NCBI GenBank assembly: GCA_028873815.1
Contig: JAPPNN010000022.1
Coordinates: 21,821-85,820, forward strand
From: Gemmatimonadota bacterium
Lineage (GTDB): Bacteria > Gemmatimonadota > Gemmatimonadetes > Longimicrobiales > Gaopeijiaceae
Direction: 5' to 3'
DNA length: 64,000 nucleotides
Positions 279 to 26,804 of this stretch are shown in pieces. The notes below the pieces were generated by a model that was not told the DNA's origin, searched no databases, and was given only the letters and a program-made list of their open reading frames with translations. Numbering within the stretch: position 1 is the stretch's first letter; each line of letters begins with the position of its first letter. A program made the translations under genes and the position numbers.

Positions 279-1802
279 CTACCCGCAACCCCCCTGCGTC
301 CTCCGGTTCAGGAAGTCGTACTCGGTCTCTTCCAGACCCTCTCCTCCGGGTGCTCCGGCTGACACCAGAACCTCGACCACCGACTCGTACTTCAGCGCCC
401 TGGCCTGGTCGAGGGCCGTAAAGCCCTCAGCGGTCGTCATGGCCAGGTCGGCACCGGCGCCAACGAGTAGCTGGACCTTCTCCAGCGTCGCCTGCTCATG
501 CTCCGCCGTGCAGACGCGCTCGTAGACCCACGGCCTTCCCGCATTGCTCATGCCGAGGGCCGCCATGAGGGTGGTCGTGACCTCCAGCTGCCGGGCCGCG
601 AAGATTCCCGAAGTCAGGGCGCCGTCGCTGCCGGCGAAGTACTCGCTGCGGTGCACGAAACGCGGGTCGGCGCCGTGGGCCAGGAGGCTCCGGAGGATAC
701 CGGCTGTTCCGAAACGTGCGGCGAGCCACACCGGGCGGGCGCCAATCCAGCCGTTGTGGAAGTAGAAGGCCTGGTTGGAGCCGCGCTGGTGGGGGGTGAA
801 GGTGGCGATGGGGAGTGTGACATCGGCCTCGTGCTCCAGGAGCAGGTCCACCGAGCGCTGGTCGTGGCGCAGGATGGCGGCGTGCAAGGCCGTGAACCTG
901 TCGGATCCGGCGTTGGGGTCGGCGCCGGCCTCCAGCAGGAACTGAATGAGTTCCCCGAACCGGCCGGGGCGGAAGCCCTCGCGGCCGCCCATCGTGTAGG
1001 GACCGCCCGACGAGAATGCCGGCTCGGCCACGAGGGTGCGGAAGTTGGAGTAGGCCGCCATGGCCAGTGCGCTGACGCCAAAACCCGACCGGTCGTCCAC
1101 GTTGGCGCCGGCAGCCACCAGGTGCCTCGCCGATTCCGCCTCTCCGACGCGCGCCGCAAACATCAGGGCGGTGTTGCCACCGTGCTCGAACCACCCCTGG
1201 TTCTGGATGTGCGTATGCGGCTCGTGCGCCTTCAGCTCGACGGTCACAACCGTCCGGGCGTGCACATTCGCCCCATGATCCAGCAGAGCCTTCACCACGC
1301 CGGGCGAGCGACTCAGCACCGCCCACATCAGCGCGGTCTGGTCCCTCGGTCCGGTCGCGTTCACATCCGCCCCGTGCTCCAGGAGCAGCTCGGCGACCCG
1401 CGCGGCGCCCGCCCTGGCTGCGGCCATGAGCGGGGTTTCCCCATGGCGCAGCGCGAGATTCGGCTTCGCCGCAGCATCCAGGAGCAGTTCCGTCACCGCC
1501 ACGCTGCCGTTCTCGCTCGCCGCCCACAGTGGCGTTGCGCCGAGGTCGTTGGCCCGGTCCACATCGGCCCCGGCAGCGACCAGCAATGCCACGCTTTCCG
1601 GCAGATCCCGGTGCGCAGCCCATAGCAGGGCCGTCGATCCGTCGCCACCCGTGGCGTTGGCGTCCGCGCCCTGCTCCACCAGCGTGCGGAGCGTCGCCTC
1701 GTCGCCATTCTTCGCGGCCTCCACCAGTGGGGGATCACCCGCCGCGGGGACTGGATCGCCCGCAGCCGCGAGAGCCAGCGCGAGTACCAGAGGCAGCGTC
1801 AT
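279..1802 (-). CDS. Secreted ankyrin-repeat protein (triad copy 1)
   Basis: 507 residues. A signal peptide of about 15-20 hydrophobic residues (MTLPLVLALALAAAG) precedes ankyrin repeats that run to near the end; repeat signatures such as DGSTALLWAA, LGATPLWAAS, GETPLMAAA and DQTALMWAV recur about every 33 residues. It is the last gene of the operon that starts at 7,739 and its start overlaps the stop of the EF-hand-like gene by 4 bases. Ankyrin repeats bind proteins, so an export-linked scaffolding or partner-binding role in the periplasm is inferred. Unlike the two other ankyrin proteins of the window (15,241 and 21,147) it ends in GGCG and lacks their C-terminal CVSC. Confidence 0.85.
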   Translation of the reverse strand: MTLPLVLALALAAAGDPVPAAGDPPLVEAAKNGDEATLRTLVEQGADANATGGDGSTALLWAAHRDLPESVALLVAAGADVDRANDLGATPLWAASENGSVAVTELLLDAAAKPNLALRHGETPLMAAARAGAARVAELLLEHGADVNATGPRDQTALMWAVLSRSPGVVKALLDHGANVHARTVVTVELKAHEPHTHIQNQGWFEHGGNTALMFAARVGEAESARHLVAAGANVDDRSGFGVSALAMAAYSNFRTLVAEPAFSSGGPYTMGGREGFRPGRFGELIQFLLEAGADPNAGSDRFTALHAAILRHDQRSVDLLLEHEADVTLPIATFTPHQRGSNQAFYFHNGWIGARPVWLAARFGTAGILRSLLAHGADPRFVHRSEYFAGSDGALTSGIFAARQLEVTTTLMAALGMSNAGRPWVYERVCTAEHEQATLEKVQLLVGAGADLAMTTAEGFTALDQARALKYESVVEVLVSAGAPGGEGLEETEYDFLNRRTQGGCG

Positions 1803-2455
1803 CCGATCCCCTCTCCCTTCAACAGCAATCGCATGTGTTCCTGGGCCACGTACAGACCGCCCTCTCGCTCCTGCCAGGTTACGCGCCCGTCTCCGTTCGC
1901 GTCCACACCGTTCCGGAGCTGGAAGCCCAGGGTGTTGAGTTCGTCGGACAGCTGGTCTGCCTCATCTGCCGACACCGTCGCCCGGATGTGCTCCGTGACC
2001 TCCAGCATCCTGAGGGCACGCGCAAGGGTGTTCTGCACACAGCTCACCACGTGCCCCGCGTGTGTGCGCAAGCTCTCCGAGGCGTCTGGAGCATCGGCCG
2101 CCATCCGCACGTGCGCGATGGTCTTGCGGGACGCTTCCACGAGTCCGAAGCCCAGGCCGGGGCCGTTGTCCATCCGGGTGGGATCTAGGGCGTGCAGGAC
2201 GTTGCCGGCGTGCGTTTTCATGGCCTGGAGATCACCCGGCCGCTGCTGTCCCCCCGCTGCGAACGACGCGTACTCGGCCGCGGTGCCGGCCTCGCCCAAC
2301 GCCTGCCGCAGGAACCCCAACTCGGCCACCGAAGCCGCCTCGGGATTCACCACCTTCAGAATGTGAGCGTGAGCGCCCTCCTGTGCCCCCACCGCCGCGG
2401 CGAGGAGCCCCAGGCCGGCCACGACCCCGGACACCATGACAACCGGCCTGATCAC
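1799..2455 (-). CDS. Secreted protein with a single EF-hand-like calcium loop
   Basis: 218 residues with a GTG start that overlaps the preceding propeller stop as GTGA. An N-terminal hydrophobic signal (residues 5-24, ending VGAQEG) indicates export. A canonical EF-hand loop DANGDGRVTWQE lies at about residues 185-196. Two similar helices, THAGNVLHAL (81-90) and THAGHVVSCV (131-140), suggest an internally repeated helical domain with conserved His. I recognise no named family. Its place between the propeller and ankyrin genes of an exported redox operon suggests a periplasmic accessory role, possibly calcium-dependent. Confidence 0.7.
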   Translation of the reverse strand: MIRPVVMVSGVVAGLGLLAAAVGAQEGAHAHILKVVNPEAASVAELGFLRQALGEAGTAAEYASFAAGGQQRPGDLQAMKTHAGNVLHALDPTRMDNGPGLGFGLVEASRKTIAHVRMAADAPDASESLRTHAGHVVSCVQNTLARALRMLEVTEHIRATVSADEADQLSDELNTLGFQLRNGVDANGDGRVTWQEREGGLYVAQEHMRLLLKGEGIG

Positions 2456-3405
2456 GGGTCTCCGACCTTCCGGTACTTCCTCAGATACCAGACCTCGGAT
2501 GGATCGTCCCAGAACTGGCTGTCGGAGGGCGCGGGGGTCGCGGCATACACGTTGCCCTGTCCGTCCACCGCGATCCAGTGGATGGCCTTCGTATCCTCGA
2601 TGGTCTCCAGGAGTTCGCCGTCGCTGGCCCGGGCGATCCAGATCCTGGCGTTCACGAGGTCGGCCACGTATAGCCGGTCGTTGTCATCGATCGACAAGCC
2701 GTACGGCGAGCCCAGGTGGTCCCACACCTCGAGGAGATTGCCGTCCAGGTCGAAGATCTGGATGCGGGCGTTCTCGCGGTCCCCCACGAGCACGCGGTTC
2801 CGCGCGTCGACCACGATCGTGTGCGGAAGGTTGAACTGTCCCGGCTCGGTGCCCGGTCCCCCCCACGCCGTTATGAACTCCCCATTGCGGTCGTACTTCA
2901 CCACGCGGCTGTTCCCGTAGCCGTCGGAGATGAACAACTCCCCGTCGGGGCCGAAGGCTGTGTCCGTGGGACGATCGAAGAGATCCGCGGTCTCGCCGGC
3001 CACGCCGTATTCGCCCAGGGTCATGAGCAGTTCGCTGCCGTCCTGACTCCACTTCTTGACCTGGTGCCCCTGTCCGTCGACGGTCCAGACTGCCCCGTCG
3101 GGCCCGACGCGGATTCCATGCGCCCACTGGGCGAAGTCCTGATCCCACTCCTCCAGCAGGTTTCCGTCCGCGTCGAGCTTCAACACATCGTTGGCGTCCC
3201 GGCGGAAGGCATGGACGTTGCCGTCGTCGTCGACATCCACCGCCGTTACGGTCCCCATGTCCTCGCGAGCGCCGCCCCAGCCGTCCACCAACTCGTAGCC
3301 GGTGGCCTGCGCGGTCTCGCGGTCCGCGTCCGGCGCCGGCTGGCACGACACGGCGCCTGCGACCACCAGGCCTCCCGCCACCGTCCGGATCGACACGGTC
3401 CTCAT
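2452..3405 (-). CDS. NHL-repeat six-bladed beta-propeller lipoprotein (peptidylglycine alpha-amidating lyase-like)
   Basis: 317 residues. The N-terminus ends in GAVSC with Cys21, a plausible lipoprotein signal. Repeated NHL-type blades are visible: VDVDDDGNVHAF, VGPDGAVWTVDGQGHQV, FGPDGELFISDGYGNSRVVKYD, VDARNRVLVGDRENARIQIFD and IDDNDRLYVADLVNARIWI. This pattern is that of NHL proteins annotated as peptidyl-alpha-hydroxyglycine alpha-amidating lyase-like; enzymatic activity is not shown. It starts 1 base inside the FmdB stop, and the next gene overlaps its stop by 4 bases, so it is a true operon member. It may bind a partner or substrate of the neighbouring DUF1592/DUF1552 proteins (inference). 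Confidence 0.8.
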   Translation of the reverse strand: MRTVSIRTVAGGLVVAGAVSCQPAPDADRETAQATGYELVDGWGGAREDMGTVTAVDVDDDGNVHAFRRDANDVLKLDADGNLLEEWDQDFAQWAHGIRVGPDGAVWTVDGQGHQVKKWSQDGSELLMTLGEYGVAGETADLFDRPTDTAFGPDGELFISDGYGNSRVVKYDRNGEFITAWGGPGTEPGQFNLPHTIVVDARNRVLVGDRENARIQIFDLDGNLLEVWDHLGSPYGLSIDDNDRLYVADLVNARIWIARASDGELLETIEDTKAIHWIAVDGQGNVYAATPAPSDSQFWDDPSEVWYLRKYRKVGDP

Positions 3406-3662
3406 CAGTGGTCGTCCGCCAGGTGGTCGTGCAACACCTTGTGGTCCTCATGCCGCTTCTCACGGCGGATCCCGCTGGCGTGCGCCCGCGCACTCTGCCG
3501 CGCACGCTTCCGTGAATGCTCGGAGCTGACGGTGTGCAGGGAAATCAGCTTCTCCAGGTCGTCGCCACGGCAGGCGGGGCACCGGGGCGGGCCGGACGAG
3601 CGCAGGACCAGACACTCGAACTCCTCACCACAGTCCCGGCATCGATACTCGAAGATGGGCAT
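3405..3662 (-). CDS. FmdB-family zinc ribbon protein
   Basis: 85 residues. The start MPIFEYRCRDCG with Cys8 and Cys11, then CPAC (Cys28, Cys31), is the CxxC-x16-CxxC zinc ribbon of the FmdB/putative regulatory protein family. The C-terminal half is basic and His-rich (EKRHEDHKVLHDHLADDH), which could bind metal or nucleic acid. It has no signal peptide, so it is probably cytoplasmic, which is odd inside an operon of exported proteins. It sits 26 bases after the DUF1552 gene. It could regulate the operon, but nothing in the sequence proves this. Confidence 0.85.
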   Translation of the reverse strand: MPIFEYRCRDCGEEFECLVLRSSGPPRCPACRGDDLEKLISLHTVSSEHSRKRARQSARAHASGIRREKRHEDHKVLHDHLADDH

Positions 3663-3688
3663 CGGTCAGCCACAGCCTCTCCCGCGGC

Positions 3689-5047
3689 TCAGAGCTCGCC
3701 GAGGGTGTCGATGGGAAGCCGCCCCGTACTGCCGCCGATCTTGTCCATCGGCATGTCCATCTTGTCCATGAGCGTGGCCAGCAGGTTCGCGTGCGTCGGT
3801 CCGCCCTCGTACCTGATGTGCTGTCCGCCGTTGAGCTTGCCGTTGGCGCCGCCGAAGACGACCAGCGGGATGTTGTCGCCCGCGTGACGCTGGCTGTTGG
3901 AGATCCCCGATCCGTACAGCCCGGTGATCGAGTCCAGCAGCGTACCGTCCCCGTCCGGCGTGCGGCTCAGCTTGGTCAGGTGGCGCGTGAAGAGTTCGAC
4001 GTGGTAGCGGTTGATCTTTGCCACGTACTTCACCAGGTCGGGGCGGTTGCCGTGGTGCGACAGCGGATGCCAGGCCTCGGGCACGCCGATCTGCGGATAC
4101 GGGCGCGCGTTCACCTCGCGTCCGATCATCATCGTCGACACCCTGGTGATGTCCGCCTGGCAGGCCAGGATCTGCATGTCGAGCAGCAGCTCCAGGTGAT
4201 CCTCCAGCGTCTCCGGGATGCCCTGGGGCTGCTCCATGTTGGGCAGGTCCACGTCCAGTTGCTCCTCCGCGATCACGATCCGCCGTTCCACGTCCCGCAC
4301 CGCTTCGGTGTACTGCTCGACGCTGCGCTGGTCCTCGGGACCCAGCTCGCGCCTTAGCGCCCGCAGCTTGTCGTTGACCGAGTCCAGCAGGCTCTTCTGC
4401 TGGTGCAGGCGCCGCTCCCGCGGCTCGCGGTCGGTCGTTCCGGTATCGCCGAAGAGCCGCTCGAAGACGGTCCGTGGGTGGTTCTCCATCGGGAGCGGCT
4501 GGGTGGGAGTCCGCCAGGAGATGGTGTGCGTGTAGGCGCAGTTCAGGATGGCGCACGTGCCGGCGTTGGGCGGGCCGTCCAGGGACAGCTCCAGCGAGCC
4601 CAGCTGCGTCTCCCTGCCCCACTCGCGCGCCAGCATCTGGTCGATCGACTCCGCGGCGATGATGTCGGTGTTGTCGACCGCGTCGATGTCGCCGAGCGAC
4701 CGTCCTACCATACCGGTCAGGAAGCTGGTGGGACCGCCGGCATGGTTGAAGTTCCACGACGCGTTCACGCCGGTCGGGATGATGATCCTGTTCCTGAACG
4801 GCTCCAGCGGCCCCAGTATTTCCGAGAGCGCGAAGTCCCGGCCGTCGCCGGTCGGGGTCCAGTAGGGCATGGACTGCCCGTTGGGTGTGTAGTAGGCGAG
4901 GAACCTGTGAGGAGACTTGCGCCTGGGGCCGCTGACGGCCGTCAGACGAGCCGGTGTCATCGCCTGCAGGAACGGCAGCATCAGCGCCGCTCCAGCCCCG
5001 CGCAGGACGGTGCGCCGCGAGATGTGCCTACCGGTGATCAGGTCCAT
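3689..5047 (-). CDS. DUF1552 protein, Tat-exported (triad copy 1)
   Basis: 452 residues from the ATG at 5,047, chosen because GGAGAGGAAAGAC precedes it and because MDLITGRHISRRTVLRG aligns with the starts of the two other copies (MHLITGRHLPRRTFLRG, MEYITGAAIPRRTFLRG). The SRRTVLRG segment plus the following hydrophobic stretch is a twin-arginine export signal. The rest matches DUF1552: an N-terminal FLAYYTPNGQSMPYW strand, a central HTISW, and a C-terminal GGANGKLNGGQHI segment. The function is unknown; the family is almost always paired with DUF1592 cytochrome-like proteins. It overlaps the end of that gene by 20 bases. Copy 1 is clearly more divergent than copies 2 and 3. Confidence 0.9.
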   Translation of the reverse strand: MDLITGRHISRRTVLRGAGAALMLPFLQAMTPARLTAVSGPRRKSPHRFLAYYTPNGQSMPYWTPTGDGRDFALSEILGPLEPFRNRIIIPTGVNASWNFNHAGGPTSFLTGMVGRSLGDIDAVDNTDIIAAESIDQMLAREWGRETQLGSLELSLDGPPNAGTCAILNCAYTHTISWRTPTQPLPMENHPRTVFERLFGDTGTTDREPRERRLHQQKSLLDSVNDKLRALRRELGPEDQRSVEQYTEAVRDVERRIVIAEEQLDVDLPNMEQPQGIPETLEDHLELLLDMQILACQADITRVSTMMIGREVNARPYPQIGVPEAWHPLSHHGNRPDLVKYVAKINRYHVELFTRHLTKLSRTPDGDGTLLDSITGLYGSGISNSQRHAGDNIPLVVFGGANGKLNGGQHIRYEGGPTHANLLATLMDKMDMPMDKIGGSTGRLPIDTLGEL

Positions 5048-7739
5048 GTCTTTCCTCTCCGGATTCACGGTTCGGCAAGCCCGGCAGTCCGGTCGTTGGC
5101 GTTGAGGGCGCGCTCATCCTCATCAGGAACTGGGGACTCTCCACGATACCCAGGATGATGGACGACCAAGTGTAGTCGTCTGCCTCCGCGTCGCGCATGA
5201 TCCTGCGGATCGTCGGCTGGTCATAGTACTCCACATCGCGCCCCAGCGCATACTGCATGAGCTTTGTCGTTACGGTGCGGACGAACTGCTCCCTGTTCTC
5301 CAGTATGAGACTGCGGAGACCCGCCAGTCCCTGGATCTCCTGGTCCGTCTCGGGCCACAGACCGGTATCGTCGATCGCGTTGCCGAGTTCGTCGATGAGG
5401 CGGCGCCCGCCCGCGGCGTCGTACGCCTCCAAGGCGAAGCCCAGCGGATCGATTGTTCGGTGACAGCTGGCGCAGGTCGGATCCGTGCGGTGCCTGGCCA
5501 GCCGCTCCCGGATGGACGGCTGCTGCGCGTTCCCATCGTCTTCGGGTGGTTCCAGGCTCGTGTCGAGACCGGGCGGGGGCGGGGGCACGTGACGGCCCAG
5601 GATGTTCTCCAGAATCCACTTGCCTCGTAGCACCGGCGTGGTACGCTCGGGGTACGAAGTGACCGTAAGGATGCTAGCCTGGCCCAGAAGGCCGCCCCGC
5701 TTATCCAGATCGGGAAGCAGCACCCGGCGGAAGTGACTCCCGGCGATGTGGGGCAGGTTGTAGTGGTCGGCCAGCCGCTCGTTTGCGAAGGTGTAGTCGG
5801 CGTTCAGGAGTTCCAGCACGCTTCTGTCCTCGCGGATGTTGTGGTCGAGGAAGAGCCTGGTCTCCTCTTCCATGGCCTCGCGAAGGTTGTGGCTGTACTC
5901 GAGGTAGATGTCGTCCTGCAGGAGCCGGTCGTCCAGCTCGCGGAGCTTCAGCCACTGGCTGGCGAAGTCGTCCACGAGCGTTTCGCGGGCCCGGGAGCTG
6001 TTCAGCAAGCGTCGGGTCTGTTCCCTCAGAACCGAGGGATCGGTGAGCCGGCCCGCCTCGGCCTCCCGGAGAAGCGCCTCGTCCGGAATGCTGCTCCACA
6101 GGAAGAAGGAGAGCCGCGACGCGACCTCCAGATCGCGCAGCGGATAGGGGCTGCCCCCCTCCGGCTCGCGGTAGATGCGCAGCAGAAAGTCCGGATCGAC
6201 GGCGATCCGCTCCAGTCCCAGCTGGATCCCGTGGTCGAAGCTCCCGCCTTCGTCCCTGCCCATGCGGTAGAAGCGCAGGAGGACTTCCACGTCCGCGCGG
6301 GCCAGCGGCCGACGGTAGGCGCGCCGCGCCATCGCCGTCAGGATCTCCTTGGCACAGGCCTCGTCCGTGGAAGTGGACGCCGGCTCACAGGCGAAGATCG
6401 TCTCCCGGCTCCTGGTGTTGTCGGCAACGGCCGTCTCGCCGAAGGGCCCGTCGATCTCCACGCCCAGCACGCCCGACAAGCCGAAGTGCTCGTTGTTGAA
6501 GTAGTCGATCTGGCCGCGTGTCTGGACCGGAACCTGCGGGAGGAGGTACTCCTCGCCGTAGCCCAGGTCCCTGGCATACGAGAGGCCGACGATGCGGCTT
6601 CCCGCTTCGACGCGCACGGTAGCTGCGAGAGGCGCCTCGGCGCCGAACTTGGCGTAGTCTTCCCATTCCGGCGACCCGGGCCAGCCCGGACCGCCACCCG
6701 CACCGGCATAGCTGTTGGCCACGGGCCGGTGCTGCAGCCCCTCCCCGCCGAAGGCGAGCGTGGCCGCCAGTTCTCCGTCGATGCGGATCTCGAGTTCCTG
6801 CCGCCACGCCAGCCCCCGGGCGTAACCCGCGTAGTTCTTCTGCAGACGGACCCGGATCCGGTACTCGCCGTCCACCGGGAACGTGTGGCGGATCGCCATG
6901 CCGCCACGGGAGCCGAGCGGCAGATCATCGCTCATCCTCACGTGCTGGCGCTTGGCATCGTCTGCGGCGTAGCGGGACGAGCCCGCTCCCGCCGGCGGCA
7001 ACCCGACCGCCAATCGGGTGACCGCTCGCGCGACGGAAAGGTACCGCTCCATGTGCAGCGGCGAGATGCTGAGCGCGTCGGCCACGTTGTCGAACCCGCC
7101 GCCCATGGTCTCGTCGCCGGGCAAGGCGTCTATGACATCGACATCCAGTCCCAGCAGGTCGTTGATGGCGTTGTTGTACTCGGTCCGGTTCAGGCGGTGC
7201 ACCGCGTTGATACGACCCACGTTGGGACTCCCCGACCAGGCAGCGTCCAGTTCAGACTCGAGCCAACCCGCCACCGCGTCGTAGGTCGGCCGGTCGGGCC
7301 GTCGCACGCCGCCCGGCGGCATGGCGCCCGCGCGCAGCTTGCCGGCCACCTTCTCCCATATCTGCGGGTGGGCCGCCGGGTTTGCGGCATCGTATCGGTC
7401 CAGCTCCAGCGATGCAGTGCGACGGACGTCGTTGTGACAGCGCAGACAGTATTCATTGACCATGGCCTGGGCCTCGGCACCCGTGGCCATGGGCGGGGGA
7501 TGCGCCTCTCGGGTCTCGACCACGCCGAGTGCCGCGTCGGTCACCGCCTCGACTTCGCCCGTCGACGAAGTGGAAGGGAGCGTCGAGCACGCCAGGAACA
7601 CCACCCCGGCGACGATCAACCCCACCGCCCACCTTCCTGAACAGGCCCGGTGACCCGTCGTCGGACCGGGTTGACCCGTCACCCGACCGGATTGGCGCGG
7701 GACCAACGAGCCTTCGTTCTTCGGCATTTTCGGCGCCAT
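5028..7739 (-). CDS. DUF1592/DUF1588/DUF1585 cytochrome-like protein (triad copy 1)
   Basis: 903 residues if started at the ATG at 7,739; the open frame extends to 7,982 but that extension is unlike a protein start and would cross the promoter and operator. An N-terminal membrane/lipoprotein-like segment (about 38-51) is followed by CLRCH at 98-102, a heme c motif of the planctomycete-type cytochrome domain. DUF1587, DUF1595, DUF1592, DUF1588 and DUF1585 signatures follow in that order (for example DLLGLDVDVIDALPGDE, RLSFFLWSSIPDEAL, RGGLLGQASILTVTSYPERTTPVLRGKW, ALGRDVEYYDQP). A second CASCH lies near the C-terminus. Predicted to be a periplasmic di-heme or mono-heme redox protein; the substrate is unknown. 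First gene of its operon. Confidence 0.88.
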   Translation of the reverse strand: MAPKMPKNEGSLVPRQSGRVTGQPGPTTGHRACSGRWAVGLIVAGVVFLACSTLPSTSSTGEVEAVTDAALGVVETREAHPPPMATGAEAQAMVNEYCLRCHNDVRRTASLELDRYDAANPAAHPQIWEKVAGKLRAGAMPPGGVRRPDRPTYDAVAGWLESELDAAWSGSPNVGRINAVHRLNRTEYNNAINDLLGLDVDVIDALPGDETMGGGFDNVADALSISPLHMERYLSVARAVTRLAVGLPPAGAGSSRYAADDAKRQHVRMSDDLPLGSRGGMAIRHTFPVDGEYRIRVRLQKNYAGYARGLAWRQELEIRIDGELAATLAFGGEGLQHRPVANSYAGAGGGPGWPGSPEWEDYAKFGAEAPLAATVRVEAGSRIVGLSYARDLGYGEEYLLPQVPVQTRGQIDYFNNEHFGLSGVLGVEIDGPFGETAVADNTRSRETIFACEPASTSTDEACAKEILTAMARRAYRRPLARADVEVLLRFYRMGRDEGGSFDHGIQLGLERIAVDPDFLLRIYREPEGGSPYPLRDLEVASRLSFFLWSSIPDEALLREAEAGRLTDPSVLREQTRRLLNSSRARETLVDDFASQWLKLRELDDRLLQDDIYLEYSHNLREAMEEETRLFLDHNIREDRSVLELLNADYTFANERLADHYNLPHIAGSHFRRVLLPDLDKRGGLLGQASILTVTSYPERTTPVLRGKWILENILGRHVPPPPPGLDTSLEPPEDDGNAQQPSIRERLARHRTDPTCASCHRTIDPLGFALEAYDAAGGRRLIDELGNAIDDTGLWPETDQEIQGLAGLRSLILENREQFVRTVTTKLMQYALGRDVEYYDQPTIRRIMRDAEADDYTWSSIILGIVESPQFLMRMSAPSTPTTGLPGLPNRESGEERHGPDHR

Positions 7740-7760
7740 TGCACCCCCGTTGAACGCCTT

Positions 7761-7788
7761 GTATCCGACGCTGGATACCAACATTCTA
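7761..7788 (-). promoter_or_regulatory. Operon 1 promoter with inverted-repeat operator GTATC-N8-GATAC
   Basis: On the minus strand a -10-like TAGAAT (7,783-7,788, five of six consensus bases) is followed 4 bases later by the inverted repeat GTATC (7,761-7,765) / GATAC (7,774-7,778) with an 8-base spacer. The repeat would cover the expected transcription start, a position typical of a repressor site. It ends 21 bases before the chosen start codon at 7,739. No convincing -35 was found. The same repeat with the same spacing lies before operon 2 (26,856-26,879). Confidence 0.55.
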
Positions 7789-7860
7789 GCAGTCCGTGGA
7801 TAAATCCGCACGAGCAGCGAGACCGGGGATGCGCCGCGCTGGCAAGGCGCGACGAGAGGG

Positions 7861-7934: not shown

Positions 7935-8003
7935 CTGGGCGGGTTTGTCCGCGGGCTGCCTGGCTACCTGTATCACGGTCACAAATCAATTTGAGACGAA
8001 TCG

Positions 8004-17184: not shown

Positions 17185-17195
17185 GCCGTCCTCCC

Positions 17196-18590: not shown

Positions 18591-18595
18591 CCTGG

Positions 18596-21139
18596 TCAGC
18601 CTCCGTTTCCGTTCGGCGCTTCGCCGTCGACCACCAAGGGCGCGGCCTTCAACAGGAAGGCGTCGCTGGTCGCCACTCCGACGATGAACGCAGATACCCG
18701 GTAGTCTTCCTCGGCCGCGGCGCGGGTGATCCGGCGCACGGCCGGCATGTCATAATACTCCAGACGGCGCCCGAGCGCATATGCCATGAGGTTTTCGGTG
18801 AACGTGCGCACCAGCGGCTCGGGCCGCTTCAGCAGCGCCGCGCGCAGTTCCGAGGGCGTCGAAATGGGCGTGCCGTCGTAGAAGTCGCTGGCCGCGTCGA
18901 TCGGAACGCCCTGGTCCCGGATCCGCCACGCGCCGGTCACGTCGAAGTTCTCGAGCGCCAGACCGATCGGGTCGATCATGCGGTGGCAGGAGTTGCACGT
19001 CGGGTTGGCAGCGTGCATCTCGAGGCGCTCGCGCACCGTGAGGAAGCGACCGTCCCCCACCGCCTCTTCTTCCAGCTCGGGCACGTCGGGCGGTGGTGGT
19101 GGCGGCGGCGTCCCCAGGAACACTTCCATCACCCACTTGCCCCTCAGCACCGGCGACGTGCGGCCCGCGTGCGAGGTCAGCGTGAGGATGCTGCCGTGGC
19201 CCAGCAGGCCCCGTCGCTCGTCGTGCAGGTAGCGGACGCGCCGGAAGCGGTCACCTGCGATATCGGGGATACCGTAGTGCCGCGCCAGCCGTTCGTTCAC
19301 GAAGGTGTAGTCGGCGCTGTACAGGTCCATGACCGACGCGTCTTCGCGGACCAGGTTGTCGAAGAAGGTCTCGGTCTCCTCCAGCATCGCGCGCTTGAGC
19401 GGCTCGTCGAAGTCCGGGTTTACGCGCGGGTCGGGCTGGATCTTCTCCAGGTCCTGGAGGCGCAACCACTGCCCGGCGAAGCGCGTCGAAAGCGCCGCGG
19501 AACGGGGGTCGCGCAGCATCCGATGCACCTGGGTTTCCAGCACGGCCCGGTCCGACAGCCGGCCCTCGCGCGCTACCGCCATCAGCTCGTCGTCGGGGCC
19601 GGATCCCCACAGGAAGAAGGAGAGGCGGGCGGCCAGATCGTGGTCGCCGACGCGGTAGGCTGGCGCCGGCCCCTCGCCCGTTCCGCCGGCCAGGCCCGCT
19701 GCCGCGGTCGGCTCCTCGATGCGGAAGATGAAGTGCGGGCTGGCGAGGATGCCCTCCAGCGCCATGCGCACCCCGCCCTCGAAGCCCTCGACCTCCGCAC
19801 CGGCATCATAGAGCCCCATCAGCGCGGCCATGTTCGCCTCGGTCAACGAACGCCGGTACGCGCGGGTGCCCAGGCGCGCGACGATCTCGCGCGCACAGCC
19901 TCGCGCCACGTCCACGGTCGCTTCCGGGTCGGCCGCCGCCTTGGGACGACACGTAAACACCGCGTGGCGGCTCGGTGTGTCCGATACGCCCTGGGGATCG
20001 AACGGGCCGCCGATCGCAAGGTCCCGCAGGTGCGGGAGCACGGTGAAGCCGTAGCTGCCGGCGATACTGGTGCTGGCCAGCGACCAGTCGTGCGGCGAGA
20101 TCAGATCCTGGAGCGGCCCTTCGGAGCGCCGTATGAACGCCGCCGACACCTGGCGCGGACCCGCGCGCACGAACACGCGCTCGGAGCGGATATTCACGCC
20201 ATCCGGATCCGACGTGTGCATCCAGCGGTTGACCTCCAGCACCGCCACCGGTTCACCGTCGACGGAGATCTCCAGCAACTCCGGCTCGCCGTCCCCGGTG
20301 TGGAGGGCGTTGCGGCCGTTGCCGACAAGCGCGCCCGTGGTCTCGTGGTGGAACGACACGCGGAAGCCGTAGTAGCCGTCGGCGGGGAAGTTGTGCAGGA
20401 CGGACACCCCACCCCGCGTGCCGTACGGCGCGCCTTCCACCCGCTCGCTCTGGGAGTCCCAGCGAGAAACCCGGTACGTCGACTCGCTGGGCGTGATGTG
20501 GGGGTCGCCGATCGCCAGCCGGCTGATCTCCGCGGCCGCCCGCAGGTAGCCGTCGGTCAGCGTGGCCGACAGGAGCTGCGCGTCGGCGATGTTGTCGAAG
20601 TTCGCGCTCTTGGTGTCCAGGGGAAGGTAGGCACCCGCGTCGATCCGGAGGTCGAGAAGGTCGCGGATCGAGGCCTGGTACTCGGCGCGGTTCAGGCGTT
20701 GGAAGGTGCGGCGACCGGGATTGGGGTTCTCGGCCGCCGCACGGTCCATCTGGGACTCCAGCGACTCGATCAGGCCCAACAGGACGGTTGCCTCGGGGCG
20801 CCGATTCCCGGGCGGGGGCATCAATCCGGCCCGCAGCTTGCGGATCATCTTTTCGGCGAGCTCGCCGTTGGTGGGCGCGTCGGTTGCGTCGAATGCCTCC
20901 AGGGACATGTTCCCGAGCAGCCGTCGCTCGTTGTGACAGCGAACGCAGTATTGCCGGATGACCTCGTTGTCGTTGAGCGCTCCCCCGCCGGCCGGTCCGG
21001 CGATCCCGAAGACCGTTTGGGCCGGACCCCACCCAACCGGTGAGCCCGCGGCACGGCCGTCGGGCGTGGACGCAAGCGAGACCCCGAGGCCGACGAGAAC
21101 AACGCCGGCCGCCGCTACCGGGGCCGCGTGCTTCAGCAT
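18596..21139 (-). CDS. DUF1592/DUF1588/DUF1585 cytochrome-like protein (triad copy 2)
   Basis: 847 residues. A signal segment (MLKHAAPVAAAGVVLVGLGVSLAS) is followed by the heme c motif CVRCH at residues 65-69 and RRLLGNMSLEAFD. The usual domain chain follows: DUF1587 (FQRLNRAEYQASIRDLLDL), DUF1592 (ARLSFFLWGSGPDDEL), DUF1588 (RRGLLGHGSILTLTSHAGRT), and DUF1585 with NSCH and ALGRRLEYYDMP. A second CxxCH (CNSCH) in the C-terminal third could bind a second heme. Predicted periplasmic redox protein. It lies seven bases after the ankyrin gene of copy 3, so the two triads are transcribed together. Confidence 0.9.
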   Translation of the reverse strand: MLKHAAPVAAAGVVLVGLGVSLASTPDGRAAGSPVGWGPAQTVFGIAGPAGGGALNDNEVIRQYCVRCHNERRLLGNMSLEAFDATDAPTNGELAEKMIRKLRAGLMPPPGNRRPEATVLLGLIESLESQMDRAAAENPNPGRRTFQRLNRAEYQASIRDLLDLRIDAGAYLPLDTKSANFDNIADAQLLSATLTDGYLRAAAEISRLAIGDPHITPSESTYRVSRWDSQSERVEGAPYGTRGGVSVLHNFPADGYYGFRVSFHHETTGALVGNGRNALHTGDGEPELLEISVDGEPVAVLEVNRWMHTSDPDGVNIRSERVFVRAGPRQVSAAFIRRSEGPLQDLISPHDWSLASTSIAGSYGFTVLPHLRDLAIGGPFDPQGVSDTPSRHAVFTCRPKAAADPEATVDVARGCAREIVARLGTRAYRRSLTEANMAALMGLYDAGAEVEGFEGGVRMALEGILASPHFIFRIEEPTAAAGLAGGTGEGPAPAYRVGDHDLAARLSFFLWGSGPDDELMAVAREGRLSDRAVLETQVHRMLRDPRSAALSTRFAGQWLRLQDLEKIQPDPRVNPDFDEPLKRAMLEETETFFDNLVREDASVMDLYSADYTFVNERLARHYGIPDIAGDRFRRVRYLHDERRGLLGHGSILTLTSHAGRTSPVLRGKWVMEVFLGTPPPPPPPDVPELEEEAVGDGRFLTVRERLEMHAANPTCNSCHRMIDPIGLALENFDVTGAWRIRDQGVPIDAASDFYDGTPISTPSELRAALLKRPEPLVRTFTENLMAYALGRRLEYYDMPAVRRITRAAAEEDYRVSAFIVGVATSDAFLLKAAPLVVDGEAPNGNGG

Positions 21140-21146
21140 GTACGCC

Positions 21147-22970
21147 TCAACAGGAAACGCAGTTGTGGTTGTTCACCGCACCGAGACTCTCCAGCAGAGC
21201 GATGGTCTCCGGGAACGGCTGGATCCGCTGCACCGGGCCGTTGGCCATGTCCACCGTCGTCTGCCCGCGCCTGCTGACGAGGGTGACATCGGCGCCCTGC
21301 TCGACCAGGTACAGGATCAGTTCGTTGTCGCCGCGGGCGGCTGCGTGATGGAGTGGGCTGAATCCCTCGTGGTCGCGCGCGTTGACGTCGGCCCCGAGTT
21401 CCTCGACCAGGTAGCGGACGGCCGGGATCCAGGCGTCGGGCACATGACGGTGTGCATTGCCGGCGAATCCCTGACCGTATCCGACTCCCGCGGCCGCGTG
21501 CACGGGGTACACCGCGGGACCGCCGACGGGTACGGGCGGCAAGCCGGATGCATCGGCCGTGTCGTCTCCGCCGCGGCCGTAGCGCCTCGATGGAACCTTT
21601 TCGGTCGGAATCGAAGGGTCGGCGCCGTAAGCCACCAGCAGCTTCATGGCCTCCACGTCGAGGGCGTAGGCTGCGCGCCAGAAGGGTGTGGCACCCTTCG
21701 CGTCGATCTGGAGCAGGTCGAAATTGTAGGACATGAACCAGAGGTGCTTGCGGAGACGCACGTTCGGGTCCGCGCCCGCCTCGAGGAGCTTCCGCATCAC
21801 CTCCAGGTAGGTGTGATCCTGCTGCATGTAGATGTGCTGCTGCGGGTATCGCGACTTTGGCGCCCAGTGCGTGTTGAGCGCGGCAAACAGCGGCGTGGCC
21901 CCGGCGTGGCTTGCAAGGTTGGGGTCCGCGCCGCGCTCCAGCAGGCGCATGGCCAGATCATAGTGTCCGTTGATGGCCGCCATGAGCATGGGACTGGTCC
22001 CGTCGCCGGCGCTCGTCTGATCGATGTCCGCACCGCCGTTCACGAGCGCGAACGCGGTCTCCGCGTGGCCTTCCCGGGCAGCGTGCAGAAGCGCGGTGAG
22101 GCCGCCGTGTCCGCCCACCAGCTCACCGTAGGAGAGCGGTTCCGGCTCTTCGATCATGCGCGTCTCGGACTCTTCCAGCGAAGCGGCTTCGGCCCGTTCG
22201 CGGCGCGACTCCTCCTCCTGCTCGCGGCGCAGGGTCTCGGCGACTTCGGGTCCCCACGGTTCGCCCGCCGCGACGCGCCTGTTGCGCTCCGAGCGCTCGA
22301 TCCGGTCCGTGACCGCCCGGGCAACCACGTCCATTACCCCGGTGTGCATCGACGCATCCGCCCCCGCCGCCAGAAGTGACCGCACCGCTTCCGTTCGTCC
22401 CTTCGACGCGGCGAAGATCAACGGCGTCTGTCCCCAGGACTCCTCTGTTGCGCTTGCGTCGGCACCCGCGCCCAGCAGCGCCTCCACGGCAAGGACACTG
22501 CCCGAGGCAGCTGCGAAATGGAGCGGCGTCGGCCTCCCGGCCACGTCGACCCGCGCCATGGGGTCGGCGCCCGCGTCGAGGAGCAGCGCGACCACCTCGC
22601 CCGCACCAACCTCGCCGGCCATGTGGAGCGCGGTGTAGTGGCCGATGCGCGTCCCCGCGTGCACGTCGGCCCCCGCGTCGAGCAGGACGTTCGCCAGCGA
22701 CGGGTCCCCGTTGCGCGCCGACCAGTGGAGCGCGGTCATCCCGTCTCCCTGGGCGGCGTTGACGTCCGCTCCCTCCGCGAGAAGCCCCCTGACCGCATCC
22801 CTGTCGCCGCGCATGGCCGCGTCGGCAACCGGCGATTCGGTCGACGGGTCCAACACCGGCGGCGGCACCAGGTACCCGGCAGCAGCACCCGGTCGACCCC
22901 CGTCCGGCATCCACGGTGCCAGAGCTGCGAAGAGCAGCAGGGGAAGCCAGGCATTCACGCGCGTCGCCAT
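21147..22970 (-). CDS. Secreted ankyrin-repeat protein (triad copy 3)
   Basis: 607 residues. A signal peptide (MATRVNAWLPLLLFAALAPW) leads into ankyrin repeats in two blocks: GMTALHWSARNGD, HYTALHMAGEVGA, PTPLHFAAASGS and GQTPLIFAASKGR, then after a charged linker (RREQEEESRRERAE) GLTALLHAAREGH, GTSPMLMAAINGH and GFSPLHHAAARGD. The end NNHNCVSC matches copy 2 (NNHRCVSC), and both share the preceding MANGPVQRIQPF segment. It starts four bases after the DUF1552 stop of copy 3. Partner binding is inferred; the target is unknown. Confidence 0.87.
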   Translation of the reverse strand: MATRVNAWLPLLLFAALAPWMPDGGRPGAAAGYLVPPPVLDPSTESPVADAAMRGDRDAVRGLLAEGADVNAAQGDGMTALHWSARNGDPSLANVLLDAGADVHAGTRIGHYTALHMAGEVGAGEVVALLLDAGADPMARVDVAGRPTPLHFAAASGSVLAVEALLGAGADASATEESWGQTPLIFAASKGRTEAVRSLLAAGADASMHTGVMDVVARAVTDRIERSERNRRVAAGEPWGPEVAETLRREQEEESRRERAEAASLEESETRMIEEPEPLSYGELVGGHGGLTALLHAAREGHAETAFALVNGGADIDQTSAGDGTSPMLMAAINGHYDLAMRLLERGADPNLASHAGATPLFAALNTHWAPKSRYPQQHIYMQQDHTYLEVMRKLLEAGADPNVRLRKHLWFMSYNFDLLQIDAKGATPFWRAAYALDVEAMKLLVAYGADPSIPTEKVPSRRYGRGGDDTADASGLPPVPVGGPAVYPVHAAAGVGYGQGFAGNAHRHVPDAWIPAVRYLVEELGADVNARDHEGFSPLHHAAARGDNELILYLVEQGADVTLVSRRGQTTVDMANGPVQRIQPFPETIALLESLGAVNNHNCVSC

Positions 22971-22974
22971 GAGC

Positions 22975-24357
22975 CTACACCGTCAGGGAAAAGTCGCCCG
23001 TGCTGTTGCCGAAGCGCTTCATGTCGTCCAGCCCCAGCTTGTGCGCCAGGCTCAGCATGACGTTGGCCATCGGGGTGCCCGGGGCTGCGCGGAGGTGGAG
23101 GTTGCCGTCCAGTTGCCCGTTCGCCCCGCCGGCAACGAAGAGCGGGCAGCGCTTGTGGTTGTGGATGTTGGGGTCGCCCATCGGGGACCCGTAGATGATC
23201 ATCGTTCTGTCGAGGAGGTGCGCATCCCCCTCCATCGTGTCTTCCAGCCGCCCCAGGAAGTACGGGAGCATGCCTACGTGGTACCGGTTGATCCTCGAGA
23301 AGGCGGTGATGTTGTCCTCGTTCCCGCCGTGGTGCGACGCCGGATGGAAGGGCCTGTCAACGCCGCTGTCCGGGAAGACCCGCGCGGACGAATCGCGTCC
23401 CATCTTGAAGGAAAACACCCGGGTCACGTCCGAGGCGAAGGCCAGCGCCTGCAGGTCGAACATCAGCTTGACGTGCTCCTCGAAGTCGTCCGGCACGCCG
23501 GCCGGAGCTTCGGGCAACTCCCGGCTCTCGCCGCTCGTGTTCTGCGCTTCCACGCGCTGGATTCGGCGTTCCAGTTCCCGGACATGCTCCAGGTAGCGGT
23601 CGAGGCGAACCAGATCCGCAGGACCCAGCGTGCGCTTCAGGTGCGACACCCTGCCGGTAATGAAATCGAGGATGCTCTTGTTGGTCCGGCGGCGTGCCGC
23701 CCGCTCTTCGGGACTGCCGCCGGCACCGAAGAGCTGGTCGAAGGCAACCCGCGGATCCCTGACCATCGGGAGTGGATCGGTGGGCGACGCCCAGCTGATC
23801 GTGTCGGTGTAGACGCAGGCATACCCGTACGCGCACCCGCCCGACTGGTCCACGTTCTCGATACAGAGCTGCATGGACGGGATCGGGGTGTCCTGACCGA
23901 AGCGCTGCGCGAACATCTGGTCGAGCGACGTGCCGACGAAGATGTCGGAACCCTCGGTCTGGTGCGGGTGTGACTGTGTTAGGAAGGTGGCGCTGGAGCG
24001 GAAGTGGTCGCCCCCGATTTCCTTCGGCTTCTTGGCCTCGGCGGGCTCGATGTCGGTGTCGCTGACGATCGTGAGGTACTTCCGATAGGGTTCGAGCGGG
24101 CTCAGCGCGCTCGGCGTTAGGTCGAAGACCCTGCCCGTCTCGGCGGGAGACCAGTAGTGCTGCGCGCGGCCCCACTCGTTGCTCCCCGCCGCTCCGTGCA
24201 CCATCTCGATCGCCACGAGCCGTGTCGGGCCGTCCGCGGCAGTTCCCAGGGCACGACCGGCGGGTATCATGGCGTCGAGGAACGGCAGCGAGATCGTGGC
24301 TCCCACACCCCTCAGAAAGGTACGGCGAGGAATGGCTGCTCCCGTGATGTATTCCAT
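22975..24357 (-). CDS. DUF1552 protein, Tat-exported (triad copy 3)
   Basis: 460 residues from the ATG at 24,357, with GAGGAGAGAG upstream; the open frame extends to 24,771 through the DUF1592 gene in another frame and is not protein-like there. The N-terminus MEYITGAAIPRRTFLRGVG is a Tat signal. Family landmarks equal those of copy 2: VAIEMVHGAAGSNEWG, DPLPMVRDPRVAFDQLFG and a C-terminal HNHKRCPLFVAGGANGQLDG. It lies 14 bases after the DUF1592 gene. The near identity with copy 2 indicates a tandem duplication of the triad. Confidence 0.92.
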   Translation of the reverse strand: MEYITGAAIPRRTFLRGVGATISLPFLDAMIPAGRALGTAADGPTRLVAIEMVHGAAGSNEWGRAQHYWSPAETGRVFDLTPSALSPLEPYRKYLTIVSDTDIEPAEAKKPKEIGGDHFRSSATFLTQSHPHQTEGSDIFVGTSLDQMFAQRFGQDTPIPSMQLCIENVDQSGGCAYGYACVYTDTISWASPTDPLPMVRDPRVAFDQLFGAGGSPEERAARRRTNKSILDFITGRVSHLKRTLGPADLVRLDRYLEHVRELERRIQRVEAQNTSGESRELPEAPAGVPDDFEEHVKLMFDLQALAFASDVTRVFSFKMGRDSSARVFPDSGVDRPFHPASHHGGNEDNITAFSRINRYHVGMLPYFLGRLEDTMEGDAHLLDRTMIIYGSPMGDPNIHNHKRCPLFVAGGANGQLDGNLHLRAAPGTPMANVMLSLAHKLGLDDMKRFGNSTGDFSLTV

Positions 24358-24371
24358 GCTGTTCTCTCTCC

Positions 24372-26804
24372 TCAGTTGCGGTCGCCGCCCATCGGCTCTT
24401 CGACGACGACGGCGGACTTCGCCATGCGGAAGGGGTCGCTCCGCGCCACTTCCTTGATGAAGGCCGACAGGCGGTAGTCCTGCGCTGCCACCGCACGTGC
24501 GATCCGTCGCACCGCGGGCATGTCGTAGTACTCGATCCTGCGCCCCAGCGCGTAGGCCATGAGGTTCTCGGTAAAGGTGCGGACCAGGGACTCCGGGCGC
24601 CGCAGCAACGCCGCCCGCAGGTCGTCGGGCCCGTGGATGGGCGTGCCGTCGTAGAGCTCGCCGAGCGTCTCGACCGGCGAGCCCGCGTCCCGCACTCGCC
24701 ACGTGCCGGTGACGTCGAAGTTCTCGAGTGCAAGACCGATGGGGTCGATGAAGCGATGGCAGGAGTTGCACGTCGGGTTCGCACGGTGCTGCTCGAGCCG
24801 TTCACGCACCGTGAGGAAGCGTCCCCCGCTCGCATCGGCGGTTGCGTCCAGTTCGGGGACATCGGGCGGAGGCGGAGGCGGAGGCGTGCCGAGCAACACC
24901 TCCATCACCCATTTCCCGCGGAGCACGGGCGAGGTCCGGTTGGCGTGCGAAGTAAGCGTCAGGAAGCTGCCGTGGCCGAGGATGCCGCGCCGCTGTGGAT
25001 TCAGGTAATCGACACGGCGGAAGTGGTCGCCGGCGACGCCGGGAATACCGTAGTGCCGCGCCAACCGCTCGTTCATGTAGGAGTAGTCCGCCGTGAGCAC
25101 GTCGACGAGGGTTCCGTCTTCCCGCACGAGCGCGTTGAAGAACATCTCGGTCTCGCGCTGCATGTCCTCGGCGAGTTGTTGATAGAAGTCCGGGAAGCGC
25201 AACGCGTCGGGATGCACCTTGTCCAGGTCCTGGAGGCGCAGCCACTGCGACGCGAACCGGGTCCCGAGCGCCTCGGCCCGGGGATCCCGGAGCATGCGTT
25301 CGACCTGATGCTCGAAAACCTCCGGATGCGACAGGTCGCCCGCGGCCGCGGCAGCGACCAACTCCTCGTCGGGCAGGCGTCCCCACAGGAAGAAGGAGAG
25401 GCGTGACGCGAGGGCACCGTCGGCAAGACGATACATCCCGTTGGCATCGACGCTGCCCGGCGCCGGCTCCTCGAAGCGGAACACGAAGTCCGGGCTCGCC
25501 AGAATGCCCTGCAGCGCCGTCCGCACCCCGATGTCGAACCCGCCCTCAGCCGTGCCTTCGGCGAAGAGGCCCATAAGGCCGTCGGCCTCGGCCTCCGTCA
25601 CCGGGCGCCGGAAAGCCCGTGTGCCCAGTCTGTCAATGATCTCGCGGGCACAGGCCGGCTCCTCGGCGGGAGTGGAGGGCAGGCAACTCATGACACGCTG
25701 CCAGGCCGCCGTCCGCGAGACCCCCGTGACGTTGTACGGCCCGCCGATGGTCAGGTCGCGAAGGTGGGGAACGCCCGTGATCCCGTACGAGTATCCGATC
25801 TTCTTGTCCGCCAGGGACCACTCGTGGGGTGAAGTCAGGTCCTCGACCGGCCCCTCCGTAACCTTGATGAACGCGGCCGACACGCGGTGCGGCCCAGCCG
25901 TAACCCTGATCGGATCGGTCACGACCTCGACCCCGCGCGGATCCTGCCGGTGCATCCAGCGGTCCAGCGGAATCAGCGCGACCCGGGCACCATCGATCGA
26001 TACCTCGACTTCCTCGTCGAAGGGCGCCGTTTGCCCGAAGAAGTTTCCGGTCGACTCGTGCTGGAACGCCAGCCGGAAATAGTATTCGCCGTCGGCGACA
26101 AAGTTGTGGACGACGGAGATTCCGCCGCGGGTGCCGAACGGAGCGCCCGGAACGTGCTGGCGCTGTTCGGCGTAGCGGGACACTTCGTACGTCGCTTCGG
26201 CGGGAGTCGCGTTGGCGTCGCCCAGGGCGAGTCGGCTCACCTCGCTCGCTGCCGTGAGATAGGCCTCGAGCAGTGTTGCGGACAGGTTCTGCACGTCGGC
26301 GATGTTGTCGAAGCCCGCGCTCACCGTCTCGCCGGGCAGGTATGCGGACGCATCGATCTCCAGACCCAGCAGGTCGTGTACGGCGCGTTCATACTCTGCC
26401 CGATTGAGACGCTGGAAGGTGCGCGTACCCGGGTTGGGGTTCCGCGCGGCCGCGCCGTCGATCGTCTCTTCCATCCCGGTCACGAACGCCAGAACCTCGT
26501 CGTCCGGCGGCCGACTGACCCCCGGTGGCGGCATCATGCCCGCGCGCAGCTTGCGGATCATCTTCTCGGCCAGCGGCGCATTGGCGACCGGATTCGCCGC
26601 GTCAAAGTCTTCGAGCGACATGTTGCCGAGCAGACGCCGTTCGTTGTGGCAGCGAACGCAGTACTCCTGCACGATGTCCGCGGCGGGAACGGCAGGTGCG
26701 GCGGAGACAGGCAATACGGCGGCCGGCCCCGGCCGGAACACCTCCGGCGCTTGCCGCGCGGAGTCGGTCCCGGAGGGGAGTGTAAGTCCCAGTAAAACCG
26801 CCAC
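24372..26804 (-). CDS. DUF1592/DUF1588/DUF1585 cytochrome-like protein (triad copy 3)
   Basis: 810 residues from a GTG at 26,804. The hydrophobic export segment seems to begin before this GTG (TRPVPVLVV in the same frame), and an AGGAGG lies about 42 bases upstream, so translation may begin further upstream at a rare start; this is unresolved. The heme c motif CVRCH is at 49-53, followed by RRLLGNMSLEDFD as in copy 2. DUF1587, DUF1592 (ASRLSFFLWGRLPDEEL), DUF1588 (RRGILGHGSFLTLTSHANRT) and DUF1585 (NSCH, ALGRRIEYYDMP) follow. First gene of the six-gene operon, directly behind the inverted-repeat operator. Confidence 0.88.
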   Translation of the reverse strand: MAVLLGLTLPSGTDSARQAPEVFRPGPAAVLPVSAAPAVPAADIVQEYCVRCHNERRLLGNMSLEDFDAANPVANAPLAEKMIRKLRAGMMPPPGVSRPPDDEVLAFVTGMEETIDGAAARNPNPGTRTFQRLNRAEYERAVHDLLGLEIDASAYLPGETVSAGFDNIADVQNLSATLLEAYLTAASEVSRLALGDANATPAEATYEVSRYAEQRQHVPGAPFGTRGGISVVHNFVADGEYYFRLAFQHESTGNFFGQTAPFDEEVEVSIDGARVALIPLDRWMHRQDPRGVEVVTDPIRVTAGPHRVSAAFIKVTEGPVEDLTSPHEWSLADKKIGYSYGITGVPHLRDLTIGGPYNVTGVSRTAAWQRVMSCLPSTPAEEPACAREIIDRLGTRAFRRPVTEAEADGLMGLFAEGTAEGGFDIGVRTALQGILASPDFVFRFEEPAPGSVDANGMYRLADGALASRLSFFLWGRLPDEELVAAAAAGDLSHPEVFEHQVERMLRDPRAEALGTRFASQWLRLQDLDKVHPDALRFPDFYQQLAEDMQRETEMFFNALVREDGTLVDVLTADYSYMNERLARHYGIPGVAGDHFRRVDYLNPQRRGILGHGSFLTLTSHANRTSPVLRGKWVMEVLLGTPPPPPPPDVPELDATADASGGRFLTVRERLEQHRANPTCNSCHRFIDPIGLALENFDVTGTWRVRDAGSPVETLGELYDGTPIHGPDDLRAALLRRPESLVRTFTENLMAYALGRRIEYYDMPAVRRIARAVAAQDYRLSAFIKEVARSDPFRMAKSAVVVEEPMGGDRN

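What the first reader, a model, noticed from the sequence alone, without database searches (positions are those of the whole stretch)
279..26804. Three copies of an exported redox triad: DUF1592 cytochrome-like protein, Tat-exported DUF1552 protein, ankyrin protein
The same gene order, DUF1592 then DUF1552 then secreted ankyrin, occurs three times: 7,739-279 (with three inserted genes), 26,804-21,147 and 21,139-15,241. Copies 2 and 3 form one six-gene operon with gaps of 4 to 14 bases. DUF1592/DUF1552 pairing is known in several phyla, but their function is not. The consistent addition of an exported ankyrin protein suggests a three-part periplasmic machine: a heme protein, a Tat-exported cofactor or metal protein, and a scaffold.
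Basis: partly seen in the sequence, partly recalled or inferred. Interest (0 to 1): 0.8.

Follow-up and report, generated by a model that had tools for sequence, protein, structure and literature searches.

The report
Exported heme, sulfatase-fold, ankyrin gene trio
Some Gemmatimonadota and Acidobacteriota genomes carry, often in several copies, the same three neighbouring genes, for a two-heme-motif protein, a protein predicted to have a sulfatase-like fold and an ankyrin-repeat protein that usually ends in a cysteine pair; the three are predicted to be exported and likely work as one redox enzyme, so ankyrin genes counted as host-interaction factors in sponge bacteria may often be metabolic instead.

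The parts
24372..26804 (-). copy 2 DUF1592 (PSD3, CBM-like sandwich, PSD5, PSD4, PSCyt3, PSD2), CxxCH at residues 49 and 679
22975..24357 (-). copy 2 DUF1552 (HXXSHH), Tat-type start, predicted sulfatase-superfamily fold
21147..22970 (-). copy 2 ankyrin, predicted exported, C-terminal NNHNCVSC
18596..21139 (-). copy 3 DUF1592, CxxCH at residues 65 and 715
17196..18590 (-). copy 3 DUF1552
15241..17199 (-). copy 3 ankyrin, C-terminal NNHRCVSC (start codon uncertain)
5028..7739 (-). copy 1 DUF1592, CxxCH at residues 98 and 756 (start uncertain)
3689..5047 (-). copy 1 DUF1552, of the second ankyrin-linked clade
3405..3662 (-). inserted gene: 85-aa Zn_ribbon_8 protein
2452..3405 (-). inserted gene: NHL beta-propeller
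   Evidence: member of a 13-locus neighbour cluster
1799..2455 (-). inserted gene: 218-aa protein without a Pfam family, signal-like N-terminus by eye
279..1802 (-). copy 1 ankyrin, predicted exported, ends GGCG, no CxxC

Best explanation
DUF1592, DUF1552 and ankyrin genes form a conserved three-gene block whose products are predicted to be exported and likely make one redox enzyme complex, in which the ankyrin protein would dock the other two and its C-terminal CxxC tail would serve the cysteine/histidine centre of DUF1552. Shown here: gene order, conservation in two phyla, two heme motifs per DUF1592, the RR start of DUF1552, the CxxC tail. Predicted: DUF1552 has the alkaline-phosphatase/sulfatase fold; DUF1592 residues of about 199-360 form a carbohydrate-binding-module-like sandwich. 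Inferred: DUF1552 is the catalytic part and takes its cofactor or disulfide state from the ankyrin tail; DUF1592 accepts or donates the electrons through its hemes and holds the substrate, probably a glycan or other polymer; several diverged sets per genome serve different substrates.
Against: No physical contact is shown. C175/C181 occur in 5 near relatives without ankyrin, so they are not specific to it. 8 of 105 ankyrins lack the terminal CxxC, window copy 1 among them, so the tail cannot be essential everywhere. The link between CxxC and C404 of DUF1552 could not be separated from ancestry (3 independent pairs). The DUF1552 stretches round H118 and C175 are low-confidence in the model, and H118 is His in only 9 of 17 DUF1552 without ankyrin. 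Mid-scoring DUF1552 have an ankyrin downstream in only 12 of 23; in several others it lies upstream or on the other strand. In tandem arrays two pairs share one ankyrin. Outside the 71-row branch two rows have an ankyrin nearby, one of them that of a neighbouring set. There is no direct evidence on the substrate.
Confidence: 0.45

Rival explanations
1. The ankyrin is a maturation factor, not a subunit: it would load heme, metal or disulfides into DUF1592 or DUF1552 and leave, as the ankyrin protein Cj1386 delivers heme to catalase KatA.
For: The Cj1386 precedent (passages of PMC11442138). Terminal CxxC and near-invariant histidines in the last repeats. One ankyrin can serve two tandem pairs (L056, L122, L184), which suits a factor better than a fixed subunit.
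Against: Cj1386 is listed as a cytoplasmic protein that binds heme by a tyrosine; these ankyrins are predicted exported. c-type heme is normally attached by general Ccm machinery (recalled). Ankyrins diversify set by set with their partners, more than a general chaperone needs.
Confidence: 0.3
2. The ankyrins are eukaryotic-like effectors for host interaction, and their place beside DUF1592/DUF1552 is incidental.
For: Sponge-symbiont work reads ankyrin abundance this way and reports more of it in sponge than in seawater Gemmatimonadota MAGs (0.25% against 0.09% of coding genes; passages of PMC8163846).
Against: The link is near-invariant. It occurs in MAGs whose isolate or contig names point to groundwater and other places without a host (e.g. 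L138 NC_groundwater, L107 LacPavin; titles, read by me). Secretion-effector ankyrin models score far under their cut-offs, at best 110 against 600 bits.
Confidence: 0.07
3. The block is an exported hydrolase system: DUF1552 is a working sulfatase-superfamily hydrolase and the hemes have a side role.
For: Fold match to sulfatases and phosphodiesterases; CBM-like sandwich.
Against: By spacing, H118 stands where sulfatases of related genomes have the catalytic Cys (HFRSSAVFLT against CSPSRAALLT), and the strand that reads S-D-N/H in sulfatases reads S-P-M in copies 2 and 3. Two heme motifs in 154 of 159 DUF1592 frames suggest electron transfer.
Confidence: 0.15

Closest known systems
DUF1592/DUF1552 (PSCyt3-PSD with HXXSHH) gene pair, uncharacterised
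   Same: Same two families side by side. PMC5615132 (passages) says PSCyt2 and PSCyt3 genes are usually next to two families of unknown genes; the search listing counts three DUF1552 mentions in that paper though none is in the main text held, so DUF1552 may well be one of them.
   Different: The word ankyrin is absent from that main text. Here an ankyrin gene is a regular third member, mostly with a C-terminal CxxC.
DUF1501 family (pairing with DUF1800 or DUF1549/DUF1553 partners recalled)
   Same: Profile comparison with DUF1552 over 76 C-terminal columns gives E 2e-4, probability 47; PSD4 touches PSCyt2/DUF1549 at E 9e-4.
   Different: Separate Pfam family; no match at E 0.001 in G000, G001 or G021.
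Cbp2D of Cellvibrio japonicus (cytochrome protein implicated in cellulose use)
   Same: [quoted passage not shown] DUF1592 here also holds DUF1587 and two CxxCH.
   Different: Cbp2D has a YceI-like domain and CBM2; neither is among the Pfam hits here. No DUF1552 or ankyrin partner is mentioned in the passages seen.
Cj1386 ankyrin heme-trafficking protein
   Same: Bacterial ankyrin protein serving a heme protein (passages).
   Different: Listed as cytoplasmic, serves catalase.

Membership tests
PSCyt3/PSD (DUF1592) family | PSD2-PSD5 and PSCyt3 Pfam matches over cut-off | tested here: met
PSCyt3/PSD (DUF1592) family | c-type heme motifs CxxCH | tested here: met
   two in 154 of 159 full-length frames, one in 4, three in 1
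HXXSHH (DUF1552) family | PF07586 over cut-off with the HxxSHH motif | tested here: met
   scores 264-284 against 30; H338, S341, H342, H343 invariant in 54 rows
Alkaline-phosphatase/sulfatase superfamily | shared fold | tested here: met
   [not shown]
Type I sulfatases | C/S-x-P-S-R catalytic motif | tested here: not met
   His at the corresponding spacing in all 54 aligned rows; the correspondence is inferred by spacing, profile comparison did not cover it
DUF1501 | PF07394 match | tested here: not met
   not among Pfam hits at E up to 10; distant profile kinship E 2e-4
Ankyrin-repeat proteins | Ank repeats over cut-off | tested here: met
Secreted ankyrin effectors of type IV systems | NCBIfam equivalog score over cut-off | tested here: not met
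   best 110 against 600 bits
Heme-trafficking ankyrins (Cj1386 type) | heme binding and delivery | not testable with these tools
   needs biochemistry
Cbp2D-type polysaccharide redox proteins | YceI-like (X158) domain | tested here: not met
   no such Pfam hit at E up to 10
Cbp2D-type polysaccharide redox proteins | carbohydrate-binding module | tested here: inconclusive
   [not shown]

The most novel reading that the evidence does not exclude
The trio is a new class of exported oxidoreductase: a sulfatase fold whose nucleophile has become histidine does redox chemistry on polymers, feeds or draws electrons through a diheme CBM-bearing cytochrome, and is switched on by the CxxC arm at the end of a dedicated ankyrin stack; genomes keep up to a dozen such sets with different specificities.
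Probability: 0.17. Interest if true: 0.9.

Novelty: new variant of a known kind. Interest (0 to 1): 0.68.

Why it matters
DUF1592 and DUF1552 are large, uncharacterised families: searches with copy 1 found 5,832 and 7,979 homologs at E 1e-20 among capped candidate lists. A regular third partner with a C-terminal thiol pair gives a concrete handle on what they do. It also bears on symbiosis work: ankyrin abundance in sponge-associated Gemmatimonadota and Acidobacteriota has been read as host manipulation (passages of PMC8163846), yet in the four genomes of one family whose Ank_2 hits were listed completely, 20 of 27 ankyrin frames over the Pfam cut-off are the third gene of a set and 22 of 27 lie in the same operons (counted by hand). 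This does not exclude a host role for the rest. The block is present in G075 (locus L060), whose single 4,636,964-base contig matches my recollection of the cultured Gemmatimonas aurantiaca T-27, so it may be testable in culture.

Tried and rejected
Fusion proteins joining two of the three parts, as direct evidence of contact: the multi-family frame check over the stretches in hand printed none. Profile comparison of DUF1552 with sulfatases of three genomes: probability 1.7, 16 columns; kinship rests on the fold match. Sequence search of solved structures with both profiles: no relative (none; two hits, BRICK1 and fibrinogen chains, E 0.12 and 0.99). DUF1592 residues of about 366-800 have no structural match listed, but as one domain filled the list this does not show a new fold. 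Coupling of CxxC with C404: present in 86 of 97 rows with CxxC ankyrin, 2 of 20 with other ankyrin, 3 of 11 with ankyrin elsewhere, 1 of 17 without, but not separable from ancestry. The label Gammaproteobacteria of L089 was not taken as a further phylum: the sample of its genome's phylum returns places identical to those. I treat the like labels of L090, L093, L115 and L087 as doubtful without having tested them. Planctomycetota and Verrucomicrobiota could not be searched for lack of a genome handle. The score bins put window copy 1 and L046 in the top bin because copy 1 was a seed of the model; the tree puts both in the other clade. One of the 15 low-scoring rows is a fragment of a split frame (L117). 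The near-invariance of the two tail cysteines is by selection; that of the other tail residues is not.
Full report
WHAT IS IN THE WINDOW. The window is G000:C71:21821-85820 of a 4.29 Mb draft genome, 68.2% GC. Among the 120 listed relatives of its copy 2 ankyrin, those that bear an organism name are Gemmatimonadota MAGs. Pfam confirms three sets of DUF1592, DUF1552 and ankyrin genes on the minus strand. Copies 2 and 3 lie head to tail with spacings of 14, 4, 7 and 5 bases and one 4-base overlap. Copy 1 has three inserted genes, of which the smallest is an 85-aa zinc-ribbon protein. The orthologous locus of G001 (L046) has frames for the same three insertions and a further ankyrin downstream; in the window's genome that further ankyrin lies just left of the window (L043). 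The genome holds eight DUF1552 places.

IS THE LINK MORE THAN CHANCE. In eight related genomes (seven of one family, one of the same order) 45 of 45 DUF1552 places have an ankyrin on the same strand within 5 kb downstream against about 0.3 expected (0.275, a slight underestimate because the Ank_2 list is cut); 5 have one upstream, as neighbouring sets would give. Forty-two of the 45 gaps are under 760 bases. The exceptions are two copy-1-type loci with insertions (2,544 and 2,451 bases) and the first of a tandem pair (4,349 bases).

HOW WIDE IS IT. DUF1552 occurs in 29 of 59 genomes of the relatives search, own included, in 113 of 298 sampled from the window's phylum and in 34 of 199 from the phylum of G315, the genome of a record titled Vicinamibacterales. 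I read the window and stretches L038-L194 (157, one a 10-base place-holder); 78 came from the named scan, which keeps the best matches only, the others I picked. 182 DUF1552 rows gave 171 after identical ones were merged. Of 130 rows with score 620 or more, 108 have at least 2.5 kb downstream; 105 of these have an ankyrin downstream on the same strand and the other 3 (L056, L122, L184) are the first of two tandem pairs that share one ankyrin. One row scores between 560 and 620 and has an ankyrin. At 420-560 it is 12 of 23, several of the rest having the ankyrin upstream or divergent; under 420 it is 0 of 15, one of them a frame fragment. By NCBI labels, of 63 named rows with room downstream 37 are Gemmatimonadota, 21 Acidobacteriota and 5 others; the others are probably wrong labels or bins, tested for L089 only.

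TREE. A tree of 90 of 145 DUF1552 rows (all 48 without a CxxC ankyrin downstream, the 2 window rows with one, and 40 random of the 95 other CxxC rows) puts 71 rows in one branch (SH-aLRT 90) in which every row has an ankyrin neighbour. The label 'none' needs 3 changes against 15.9 in shuffles. A starred branch of 51 rows holds all 42 CxxC rows. Window copies 2 and 3 fall there; copy 1 falls among ankyrins without CxxC. The data fit one gain of the ankyrin partner and a later CxxC tail, but the root is by midpoint and several long branches meet, so this is a reading, not a proof.

THE TAIL. 97 of 105 downstream ankyrins end in CxxC within 25 residues of the C-terminus. The eight others are window copy 1 and L046, four with a C-x-H-x-H...C ending (L040, L042, L050, L075), L185, and L153, whose frame looks broken. 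In 103 aligned CxxC ankyrins an arginine, a glycine, an aspartate, Ala-Asn, a proline and an asparagine before the cysteines are also near-invariant. A 66-column model of this tail (A7, 15 rows) found 128 hits reaching its end in the same 59 genomes. 115 lie 1,827 to 2,445 bases past a DUF1552 domain listed; 13 do not (that list is cut and many of these genomes are fragmented; not checked one by one). 14 of 17 partial hits are linked. The other way round, 21 of 150 listed DUF1552 places have no tail hit: by eye 9 look like copy-1 orthologs, one is a tandem pair's first member, the rest include other types and places near contig ends, not checked. Presence agrees in 58 of 59 genomes.

SETS TRAVEL AS UNITS. 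Each of the window genome's eight sets has its best DUF1592, DUF1552 and ankyrin matches in one and the same set of G001 (8 of 8). Over all 224 ordered comparisons among eight genomes DUF1552 and ankyrin agree in 126 (69.9 expected) and all three in 102; so in 98 they do not, many of them distant comparisons.

NEIGHBOURS. Around the sets recur an HpcH/HpaI aldolase-like protein (19 loci), NHL propellers (13), a family without Pfam match beside TonB receptors (11 and 7), PQQ dehydrogenases (9) and a cytochrome/copper-monooxygenase-like protein (6); Pfam names come from one representative of each cluster. The largest cluster (43 loci) has a representative that looks like a reverse-strand shadow frame, and a cluster of 9 loci overlaps DUF1552 itself; both were left out. 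These neighbours suggest oxidative use of an external substrate, a weak inference.

MECHANISM. I commit to an exported redox complex with DUF1552 as catalytic part, DUF1592 as diheme and substrate-holding part, and the ankyrin as docking part whose CxxC tail serves DUF1552. Confidence that the block is a functional unit is high (about 0.95); that the three touch, about 0.6; that the tail acts on DUF1552, about 0.3. The chief rival is a maturation factor.

LITERATURE. In the held library four papers name DUF1592 or DUF1552, four hold DUF1587, DUF1588, DUF1595, DUF1585, PSCyt1 or 'PSD1 domain', three hold DUF1549, DUF1553, PSCyt2, PSCyt3 or 'planctomycete cytochrome', two hold the Pfam accessions tried, and twelve hold DUF1501 or DUF1800 (mostly seen as a listing). 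Read as passages only: PMC5615132, PMC8981238, PMC6004670, PMC11495043, PMC2754498, PMC7789669, PMC11442138, PMC8163846, PMC9868349, PMC3932732, PMC10469786, PMC11596202, PMC11651109. None of these passages describes an ankyrin beside DUF1592/DUF1552. A search for ankyrin, periplasm, cytochrome c, operon and gene neighborhood together gave 0 papers. Most subscription papers and all bioRxiv preprints are not held and supplements were not readable, so prior description elsewhere is not excluded.

Noticed in passing
L040, L042, L050, L075 (ankyrin C-termini): A sub-clade of partner ankyrins lacks the terminal CxxC and has instead a CLHTHFLDTGDxC-like stretch followed by a longer tail; another possible metal or thiol site.
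   Followed up: partly
L056, L122, L184: Tandem arrays DUF1592-DUF1552-DUF1592-DUF1552-ankyrin, two pairs sharing one ankyrin.
   Followed up: partly
L053, L054, L055, L060, L062, L065, L066, L069, L070, L073, L107, L115, L118, L119, L135, L136, L148, L182, L186: An HpcH/HpaI aldolase-like protein sits within 7 kb of the sets in 19 loci; its representative (L115) has a signal-like start, unusual for an aldolase fold.
   Followed up: no
L043:5366-8086 (G000:C71, left of the window) and L046:12058-13020: A second ankyrin gene follows the copy 1 ankyrin in both genomes.
   Followed up: no
window:49207-50010, minus strand: A member of the neighbour cluster whose representative is DUF1028, also found near the sets in five other loci.
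   Followed up: no
window:10254-12548 and 26960-28759, minus strand: An Abhydrolase_10 protein and an M28 peptidase with PDZ domain lie on the two sides of the six-gene operon; a like M28 protein lies before the orthologous set in L044.
   Followed up: partly
L087, L089, L090, L093, L115: Record titles name Euryarchaeota, Gammaproteobacteria and Kuenenia, yet the sets look like Gemmatimonadota ones; the genome of L089 lies in the window's phylum, so some labels or bins are probably wrong.
   Followed up: partly
G007:C175:14589, G023:C88:10867, G008:C135:15950 (among 13): Full CxxC tail hits without a listed DUF1552 upstream; possible orphan ankyrins of this type or unlisted partners.
   Followed up: no
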